Shown: positions 27,501-30,500 of the stretch, in pieces
Layout: each line of letters begins with the position of its first letter
Position numbering within the stretch: the stretch's first letter is position 1
Source: Artemia franciscana
Lineage: Eukaryota > Arthropoda > Branchiopoda > Anostraca > Artemiidae
Direction: 5' to 3'
Assembly (NCBI RefSeq): GCF_032884065.1
Contig: NC_088865.1
Coordinates: forward strand, 41,729,428 to 41,793,427
DNA: 64,000 bases
Translations under genes and position numbers: made by a program
Notes under the pieces: generated by a model
Told to the model about the DNA's origin: nothing
Seen by the model: the letters and a program-made list of their open reading frames with translations, nothing else
The model's database searches: none

Positions 27501-30500
27501 AACAAAAACGATGCTTTCGTTATTTTCTTATGTTCTAAAGAGATCTTTATTTGTATAACTTTGACCATCATTGCTAATATAATTTTCTTATTAATAGGAA
27601 AAATCTCCAAGTTTTTTGTCTTTGGATACTGATGGTAGAGTTTTAAGGTTTGACTCTTTCTCCAAGATTTTAAGTTCTGGCTTGAGACTGGGTTTTGTTA
27701 CCGGACCAAAAGAACTAGTCGAGAGAATAAATCTTCATATGCAAGTTTCTGTTCTTCATGCCTCTACACTCTCACAGGTAGTCTTACTCTTTTTTTCTTA
27801 ATTTAAAGAATAAGATTAATTTAATAGAATAAGAGTTATTTTTATATATCAATTATAGCACAGAGGAAGAAACCGCGCTCGAAAACTCTGGAAACTATGC
27901 ACCTGAGGTTACTTGAGGCCAAGTCCCAGGAGTAGCCAGCCCTCAGGTAAACTTTGGATCGATCAGGCATAATTTCCGACACAATAAAGGCTAATTCTGT
28001 TTTAGAACAGTTCAAAATAGGGATGAAACCTTTTAATTGACAGTGAACAGATCAACAGATGAAAATTTTTTTAACTGGATATTTCGAACACATATACAGT
28101 GTTCATCATCAGCAGTAAAACTTTTGGAGCATCAGCAGTAAAAAGGAGTTTTACTGCTGATGGTGAACACTATATGTATTCGAAATATCCAGTTGAAAAT
28201 TTTTATATCTGTTCACTGTCAATTAAAAGGTTTCATCCCTATTTTGAGCTGTTTTACTTTCGTCATGGAAAGGCAGTGTGGTCTTTGAAGTTATCTAATT
28301 CTGTTTTATTTGTAATTGATTTAAAATTCTGATATGGCTTTTTGATTTAACATTGTATAAAAATATTTTGTTTCATTTCCTAGTTATTGAGGATATGCTG
28401 CCACGTTGCTGCCCATTTGTTTCTTCTATACCGCTGTGTATTAGTGTTAGTGATGAAGCAATCCCAGGACTGCCACCCCTAGTGATTTATCACTATTTCT
28501 GGTAATTTGTTTACATTGCCTAAATAAAAATCACTAAATCAGCATATAAATCACTAGATTATTCAAGAAACTCACTTAGAAATCACAAAAATCTATTATA
28601 ATTTTTTACCGGGTGGCACCCCTGATCAAGGCAATTGGCTGAATTTCATTGGCTTGGGTGCAGTTTTATTTTTGCGCAGCTTGTGGTTAAATTTCCACCA
28701 ATATCTGGTAAAAAAAAAAACTAGACGGGCATTATATTCAAAAGTAACCTTCGCTATTTTCAGACTGAGAAACTAACGCGGCTCTGCGCTCTGCTGTCCT
28801 TAGGTAGCTTTGTGCTGCATTGAGTTGTAAGTAGTAGCTGTTATGATCTGGCAGCAATTTAGAAAAAGCATTAAAAATCCCCATGAGTGGAGCAAAGCTT
28901 GAACATTTTATGTATTAAGATCCTGGTGACATGAATATATAGCTACGGTTGAGCTTATGCTATGCATGGAAAATGTGAGGAATGGTGAATAGTTGAGGCA
29001 TGGTTGCCATGCCTTCCATTGCTTCTTGAAGTAGTCAATTGCCAACTATTCCATTGCTTCTTGAAGTAGTCAATTGCCAACTATTCCATTGCTTCTTGAA
29101 GTAGTCAATTGCCAACTATTCCATTGCTTCTTGAAGTAGTCAATTGCCAACTATTCCATTGCTTCTTGAAGTAGTCAATTTCCAACTATTCCATTGCTTC
29201 TTGAAGTTTTTAATTGCCAACTATTCCATTGCTTCTTGAAGTAGTCAATTGCCAACTATTCAATTGCTTCTCGAAGTAGTTCGAGGAGCAATTGAAATCC
29301 GACTTAAGATTAATAATAATATTTCCTTTAATAGGGATTTAGGAGAATATTCACTGAATGCTTTATACACAAATTTTTATTAAAAATGACCTTACGAAAT
29401 ATTATAAAAAACCAATCGATATTAACACAGAACCTGCCACAAATAGAGCTATTAGATCAGCAGCGAAAAAAGCTAGACTGGCATTAAAAACCTGTTTTTC
29501 AATCATTTTCTTTCATTTCAATGAATTGCCTCGTTTCATAACAATTTATTTATCAGTCCTTGTTGAACTTTGCTGAGGTAAGGATGCTGGGTCTGCTTTG
29601 AAAACTGTTCATTTTAGTTTTATTGATTTTATCCTCTTGTAAGTTGTTTTTTCTTACTTGTATTGCCGAGGACGGCCCTTGGACATAGGGCCGAAATATT
29701 CATTCTAATTTGTTTCCCACTGTCTTAAAAAATTCCCTATTGTTCTTCTTGTTTTTGTTGTTTCCGAACAAAGCGCCGCTCCGGCACAAAAGTTTCGAAA
29801 TTAATTGTATAATCAGATTTTTAATCTTGATTTTGCTGTTAGTTTCAACTTTCTTTTAGTTTCTCTGGGGTTTTTGGTTTAATATCCTTGATTTTATTTT
29901 CTCCTTCAAGTCAGCTTTTTTTTTGTTTTTTTCCTTATCATTTATTCTTATTTTTTCCTTTTTTTCTATTGTTTTTACATATCCATTCTTGTTTACACAG
30001 AAGATATCCAGTGAATTCTATAGGCGAAATATCCATGTTATATATCCTTTCTGTGAATTCTACTGGTCTGAACTCCTTTTTTTTCGTAATTTTGTTATGA
30101 ATCGGCAGTTCAGCTTTAGATACGATGAAATCCTGTTTTCAAAACTACATAATATTTGGTTGCTGCTGTTTTTGAAATTCTAATATATATTTTAGAATAT
30201 ATTTATGAATTGGAAAATACATAAATCAAATACATTTTATATATACTTTGAAATATATAAAATATTGTGTTAGTCTTGGTGTGGTAGCAAAGGAACCTGA
30301 TTAGACTTGAAACTTTAACCTTAAAATAAACTGAGGAACCTTAAATTTGAAGTAATCATAGAAACTTTCTAGAAATGTTATTGCCATGATTTTATGACTC
30401 AACGTTTAAATCTTGCTATAGCTTTAGTTGATTTCATGTGACACAATGTGGAGAAAAAACGAAAAAATTAGGGAAACAAACAAACCAAAACGACACTAAA

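What the first reader, a model, noticed from the sequence alone, without database searches (positions are those of the whole stretch)
27999..28262. Two hammerhead-ribozyme motifs head to head in a 120-bp-arm inverted repeat inside an AADAT intron
Seen directly: both arms carry stem I, a CTGATGA/CTGATGG core, stem II GAACAC/GTGTTC (GTATTC in the right arm) and GAAATATC. Established: Penelope-like elements carry small hammerheads with a nearly absent stem III in their pLTRs, and a palindromic stem III favours dimer action. Unusual here: the two copies are inverted relative to each other with a spacer of only about 26 bp, and one nucleotide is inserted between the core and stem II. In the host pre-mRNA the + strand copy (B) lies in the sense direction but has a mutated core, while the good copy (A) is antisense. 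The intron therefore carries the ribozyme in the harmless direction, which may reflect selection or chance.
Basis: partly seen in the sequence, partly recalled or inferred. Interest (0 to 1): 0.8.

Follow-up and report, generated by a model that had tools for sequence, protein, structure and literature searches.

The report
Mirror-image end of a Penelope retrotransposon
A short stretch inside a gene's intron is the leftover end of a Penelope-type jumping element, inserted as two mirror-image copies that each carry a small self-cutting RNA motif; this arrangement is normal for that family, and the locus offers a testable hint of how such pairs arise.

Summary
In detail: an inverted repeat (28003-28122 / 28147-28256) carries one hammerhead-like motif per arm. 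Three things were missed. (1) A perfect 14-bp target-site duplication (27991-28004, 28295-28308) brackets an insert, 28005-28294. (2) The right arm has 38 further nt (28257-28294) that the left arm lacks; their last 30 nt recur at 24722-24751 (26 of 30 identical) in a decayed relative. (3) Further motifs of this type lie nearby on the plus strand, C (38569-38619) and E (29658-29708), with the same one-nucleotide insertion. A covariance model built from C and E alone finds A and B.

Inverted head-to-head pseudo-LTRs, a short target duplication and a tail on one of them is the published layout of Penelope-like elements (PMC3846280). So this is a truncated, ORF-less Penelope insertion. Head-to-head order is not unusual. 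'Harmless orientation' needs no selection: C has an intact core in the sense direction, and head-to-head order puts each motif behind its own antisense on either strand. Boldest inference, from one insertion: both target nicks primed reverse transcription, from two start sites about 38 nt apart. Self-priming, the published proposal, remains open. Catalysis and the host genome could not be tested.

The parts
27991..28004 (+). Left copy of the target-site duplication, CTAATTCTGTTTTA
   Evidence: Direct repeat D4. Of 2988 random comparisons of 20-nt with 60-nt window pieces, the longest exact shared word was 12 nt, once.
28005..28125 (-). Left arm: partial pseudo-LTR / 5' ORF segment in antisense, without tail
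28070..28120 (-). Hammerhead motif A: intact core, stem II 6 bp, would-be cleavage after 28078
   Evidence: 46.1 bits with a model built without A and B
28126..28148 (.). Head-to-head junction; 28130-28143 repeats 28107-28120 and is a perfect inverted copy of 28149-28162
   Evidence: D5 and I7; sequence
28149..28256 (+). Right arm: partial pseudo-LTR / 5' ORF segment in sense
28149..28197 (+). Hammerhead motif B: A9 is G, stem II broken (GTATTC), 2 nt fewer than A
   Evidence: 28.8 bits with a model built without A and B
28257..28294 (+). 38-nt tail on the right arm only (start placed where the match to the left arm stops, so uncertain by about 2 nt); last 30 nt recur at 24722-24751
28295..28308 (+). 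Right copy of the target-site duplication
24601..24751 (+). Decayed relative D whose similarity to the tail stops at the same base (...GTTAT), in the preceding AADAT intron; no target duplication found
   Evidence: no repeat
29658..29708 (+). Related hammerhead motif E: core CCGAGGA (U4 is C), stem II 6 bp, same one-nucleotide insertion
   Evidence: nhmmer E 2e-4 with a sequence profile of A, B, D
29992..30122 (+). Possible remnant F (CGAAATATCC and a tail-like stretch); not significant on its own
   Evidence: nhmmer E 0.26; 10.7 bits, E 5.6; not found at E up to 10
38569..38619 (+). Related hammerhead motif C: intact core CTGAGGA, sense to AADAT, about 145 nt before an exon
   Evidence: not significant with the sequence profile of A, B, D (E 0.75)
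27598..27777 (+). AADAT exon upstream of the insert

Best explanation
The feature is a truncated, ORF-less insertion of a Penelope-like retrotransposon (PLE), probably an endonuclease-bearing one, in an AADAT intron of an unidentified animal. It consists of two partial pseudo-LTRs joined head to head, each with the minimal hammerhead known from PLEs, a 38-nt tail on one side only, and a 14-bp target-site duplication. Shown here: the edges, the duplication, the tail shared with a second copy, and hammerheads of one design in A, B, C and E. Inferred: the PLE enzyme nicked both target strands 14 bp apart; each 3' end primed cDNA from PLE RNA that covered the pLTR/ORF start and was not cut by its hammerhead; the left strand started near 28005 and the right one at 28294, that is at two sites about 38 nt apart on the RNA; both cDNAs ran through the hammerhead, stopped just upstream and were joined. 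The hammerheads are passengers: in this order each transcript makes the antisense before the sense motif, and the two pair into one long hairpin.
For: 14-bp perfect duplication at both edges. Tail on one arm only; its last 30 nt recur in D, where similarity stops at the same base, and homology goes on upstream (local score 55, resampled mean 29.6, 0 of 2000; random places 0 of 1969). Stems I and II in A, C, E: 7 of 10 pairs change on both sides, 90% of 30 cells paired, 0 of 500 shuffles as high on these measures; A and C had been picked partly for pairing, E had not. Model from C and E finds A and B. Published PLE layout: inverted pLTR beside direct ones, 8-10 bp duplications, a 31-bp tail optionally at the 3' end of one inverted pLTR, palindromes at the junction, head-to-head most frequent (PMC3846280). 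Published PLE biochemistry: the enzyme cleaves and extends both strands, starts internally, the 30-40 bp tail is the sequence between two start sites, and hammerhead mutants still insert in vitro (PMC11167929). Both arms read through the would-be cut sites.
Against: No PLE reverse transcriptase or GIY-YIG ORF was seen, but only 7 ORFs and 1 exon of the window were scanned (3 of 8 gave families, all LINE-like). The host genome is not held. D shows no target duplication. Some inverted PLE copies in PMC3846280 have no duplication either, so the feature is not universal. The two-nick step rests on one insertion. The tail start is known only from where the left arm stops, so only the tail's length, not its start, supports two sites. 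PMC11167929 saw no difference in start site between the strands, so a one-sided tail is allowed but not predicted. The junction's 14-bp inverted copy (I7) is also what self-priming would leave. The arms differ at 11 of 113 aligned places plus gaps (8 mismatches in the gap placement). Stem I is weak in C and E (probability 0.02-0.05). No catalysis was tested.
Confidence: 0.85

Rival explanations
1. Same PLE insertion, but the palindrome arose by self-priming: a nascent strand folded back at the pLTR end and copied itself, as proposed in PMC3846280 (there on an antisense template). This rivals only the inferred mechanism, not the identity.
For: Perfect 14-bp inverted repeat with a 5-nt loop at the junction (I7); the proposal is in print for head-to-head PLE copies.
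Against: A copied arm should carry the tail too, unless synthesis stopped about 38 nt early; that stop would by chance match the published tail length of 30-40 bp. The I7 palindrome is only 14 nt and is off centre from the large one. Neither point is decisive.
Confidence: 0.4
2. A foldback DNA transposon or MITE that happens to contain hammerhead-like words.
For: Near-complete inverted repeat with a target duplication.
Against: One-sided 38-nt extension; D shares tail and flank without any inverted repeat found; C and E carry motifs of the same design.
Confidence: 0.04
3. The intron keeps the pair for a host purpose, such as a double-stranded RNA or hairpin source, or a ribozyme switch on AADAT splicing.
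For: Very stable hairpin in the sense transcript. Many miRNA families align weakly; each listed one is far below its gathering score.
Against: Core and stem II of B are damaged; the arms differ at 11 of 113 places; no conservation data; related debris (D, E, C) lies in the same gene.
Confidence: 0.04

Closest known systems
Penelope elements of the rotifer Adineta vaga, such as Pen2a_Av (PMC3846280; passages and the Discussion section read)
   Same: Head-to-head inverted pLTRs, short target duplication, 31-bp tail on one pLTR, junction palindromes; solo pLTRs also occur
   Different: Here no ORF remains, the duplication is 14 bp instead of 8-10, the tail is 38 nt and the arms are 110-120 bp instead of about 190-220 bp; 'hammerhead' does not occur in that paper's main text
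Poseidon of Anolis carolinensis, PAc (PMC11167929; main-text section read in full)
   Same: Hammerhead with stems I and II at the ORF start; 30-40 bp tail between two internal reverse-transcription start sites; AT-rich target (here 11 of 14 bp)
   Different: The paper places the starts in a stem-loop 111-118 nt into the ORF; here the ends lie about 94-102 and 132 nt after A9. Inverted insertions are not discussed (no 'head-to-head', 'palindrom' or 'self-prim'). Its hammerhead needed protein to cleave in vitro
Minimal type I hammerheads of PLEs and the small dimeric variants (Cervera and de la Pena 2014; Lunse et al. 2017; neither held, known here from review passages and reference lists)
   Same: Stem III reduced; association with PLEs
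   Different: Here the two motifs of the pair lie on opposite strands, so a dimer of A and B within one transcript is not possible

Membership tests
Penelope-like element insertion | Short target-site duplication | tested here: met
   14 of 14 bp at both edges
Penelope-like element insertion | pLTRs in direct and/or inverted (head-to-head) order, with an optional 30-40 bp tail on one | tested here: met
   Inverted arms and a 38-nt one-sided tail whose last 30 nt recur in D; layout from PMC3846280
Penelope-like element insertion | ORF with telomerase-like RT and, in most animal families, GIY-YIG endonuclease | tested here: inconclusive
   Absent from the insert. 7 ORFs and 1 exon of the window scanned with Pfam: RVT_1 and endonuclease families of LINE kind in 3 of 8; host genome not held
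PLE-type minimal hammerhead | Core CUGANGA ... GAA, stems I and II, UH before the cut, reduced stem III | tested here: met
   A and C complete; B and E each have one core change, and B's stem II is broken; pair counts; model without A and B
PLE-type minimal hammerhead | Self-cleavage | not testable with these tools
   No assay. The predicted best fold of A alone keeps stems I and II but pairs core GAUG with UAUC, -11.7 against -9.3 kcal/mol for the plain hammerhead fold
Rfam hammerhead families | Score above the gathering threshold | tested here: not met
   No hammerhead family in the whole window at gathering, nor at E up to 10 on 28040-28220, on A's arm and on C. That these models expect a normal stem III is recalled

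The most novel reading that the evidence does not exclude
Head-to-head Penelope pLTRs are the direct product of target-primed reverse transcription from both nicks, each strand starting at either of the two internal start sites, so that a one-sided tail is the trace of two different starts; and the endonuclease favours target sites that resemble its own pLTR/tail boundary (here the word CTGTTTTA at both).
Probability: 0.3. Interest if true: 0.55.

Novelty: new member of a known kind. Interest (0 to 1): 0.35.

Why it matters
How Penelope elements make their inverted, head-to-head ends is not settled in the two papers I read: one proposes self-priming on an antisense template, the other shows in vitro that both target strands are cut and extended but does not discuss inverted copies. 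This small insertion has all edges visible, and its one-sided 38-nt tail is what priming from two start sites on the two strands would leave. That can be tested in the published in vitro system and by counting arm ends in a PLE-rich genome. The order also gives a simple reason why such ribozyme pairs should be silent in either transcript.

Tried and rejected
Rfam: no hammerhead family matched; the miRNA families listed are hairpin matches far below their gathering scores. Selection for a harmless orientation: not needed (C is sense with an intact core; the head-to-head order itself hides both motifs). Foldback DNA transposon: disfavoured by the one-sided tail and copy D. Start codon: in A, A9 + the extra T + G10.1 read ATG, and PAc's ORF begins at stem II; only a possibility, since C and E have C there, and another ATG lies in the tail of B, D and possibly F (MERQ / MKRQ / MNRQ). 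Viral contigs: the pattern CTGAGGA-gap-CGAAATATCC gave 51 stretches; 2 of 51, near-identical to each other, had a stem II of 4 bp or more, with no stem I pair, and model R1 reached at most 20.3 bits over 481055 bases (default filters). I take them as chance and used them as a negative control. Bias in A/B differences: 8 of 11 are transitions, but D sides with A at 4 and with B at 3 of the 11, so nothing follows. Target resembling the tail boundary: CTGTTTTA stands at 27997-28004 and 28249-28256; in that register 1 of 59501 other places matches, but the register depends on where the tail start is placed (the arm match runs 2 nt into the duplication); with 5 nt of play and any 8-mer, 358 of 59501 places (0.6%) match. 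Seen after the fact.

Full report
What is there. Its arms are 28003-28122 and 28147-28256 with 24 nt between them. The RNA of the whole insert folds at -159.9 kcal/mol against a shuffled mean of -57.7. Each arm carries a hammerhead-like motif. A, on the minus strand, has the intact core CTGATGA, an extra T, a 6-bp stem II, GAAATATC and a 4-bp stem I. B, on the plus strand, has CTGATGG, a damaged stem II and 2 nt fewer. Folded alone, A is better than most shuffles (z -2.2, 7 of 200 as good) and B is not (z -1.0, 31 of 200).

Edges. A perfect 14-bp direct repeat, CTAATTCTGTTTTA, stands at 27991-28004 and 28295-28308. In 2988 random comparisons of a 20-nt with a 60-nt piece of the window the longest shared word was 12 nt, once. 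The insert is therefore 28005-28294. It is not symmetric: where the match to the left arm stops, at 28256, 38 more nucleotides follow before the duplication.

A second copy. The last 30 nt of that tail recur at 24722-24751 with 26 of 30 identical, and the similarity stops at the same base. Upstream the homology continues to about 24601 (local score 55; resampled mean 29.6, 0 of 2000; random window places 0 of 1969). What follows D's end is not the 14-mer, which supports the placing of the element's end. D has no visible target duplication.

More motifs. A strict descriptor found A and a third motif, C, at 38577 (mean 0.003 hits, 1 of 300 simulated windows). A sequence profile of A, B and D found a fourth, E, at 29659-29738 with E 2e-4, but did not find C significantly (E 0.75). 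A possible fifth, F, near 30000 is not significant (E 0.26; E 5.6). A, C and E align without gaps over 51 nt, each with one nucleotide between A9 and stem II. Seven of the ten stem pairs show changes on both sides, 90% of cells pair, and no shuffle of 500 reached the covariation score. This rests on three sequences, of which A and C had been picked partly for pairing and E had not. A model from C and E alone finds A at 46.1 and B at 28.8 bits, with the next window hit at 12.8. Over 481055 bases of unrelated contigs the model from A, C and E reached at most 20.3 bits. Rfam finds no hammerhead.

Gene context. The insert and E lie in the intron 27778 to about 32262, D in the one before, C in the one after. 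The host genome is not held and I do not name the animal.

What it is. [quoted passage not shown] some copies lack a duplication. PMC11167929 shows for PAc that the enzyme cleaves and extends both strands, that reverse transcription starts internally, that the tail corresponds to the sequence between two start sites, that the hammerhead has stems I and II with the ORF beginning at stem II, that it cleaved only with protein, and that hammerhead mutants still insert. The window insert matches this layout in the parts that survive, so I file it as a truncated Penelope insertion. The missing test is the ORF.

How it probably arose. Counted from A9, the left end of the insert is 102 nt away in A and the right arm end 94 nt in B (the arms differ by indels); the right end of the insert is 132 nt. 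If the two strands started at two different sites, the one-sided tail is explained. In PAc the start sites did not differ between strands, so such a case is allowed, not predicted. Because the tail's start is defined here by the end of the left arm, only its length, within the published 30-40 bp, supports the idea. The word CTGTTTTA precedes both the left nick and the tail start; allowing 5 nt of play and any 8-mer, 0.6% of random places do as well, and it was noticed afterwards. Self-priming, the explanation in PMC3846280, remains possible and is helped by the 14-bp inverted copy at the junction. Both arms read through the would-be cut sites, so the template was not cut there.

What it does now. 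In a head-to-head pair the sense motif follows its own antisense on either strand. In the minus transcript stem II of A has equilibrium probability 0.0 from the length at which the motif is complete, against about 1.0 for the motif with short flanks; B was not computed. So the pair should be silent whichever strand is transcribed, and no selection on orientation is needed.

Novelty. Searches of the held library listed papers of which I judged the two above the relevant ones from titles and abstracts. I did not see the two-start explanation of inverted pLTRs in the sections and passages I read; the two main papers on PLE hammerheads are not held, so I make no wider claim.

Noticed in passing
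29014-29280: Minisatellite of 35-bp units, 7.6 copies, 95% matches, downstream of the insert in the same intron.
   Followed up: no
40535-41080: Array of 76-bp units, 7.2 copies, 98% matches.
   Followed up: no
1702-2007, 4291-4594, 7264-7565, 44546-44839: Four related ~300-bp stretches, each largely self-palindromic (80-91%), beside ~1-kb blocks that repeat among these places; perhaps a foldback element family.
   Followed up: no
8302-8910 (+), 12089-15111 (-), 48770-54657 (+): LINE-like remains: RVT_1 at 8302 and 12089-13486, endonuclease domain at 14095-15111. Blocks at 48770-54657 match 8248-9296 at DNA level, though their three ORFs gave no Pfam family.
   Followed up: partly
28005-28256: 8 of the 11 differences between the two arms are transitions; D agrees with A at 4 and with B at 3 of them, too few to interpret.
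   Followed up: partly
47355-47994: Tandem duplication of a 320-bp unit, 97% identical.
   Followed up: no
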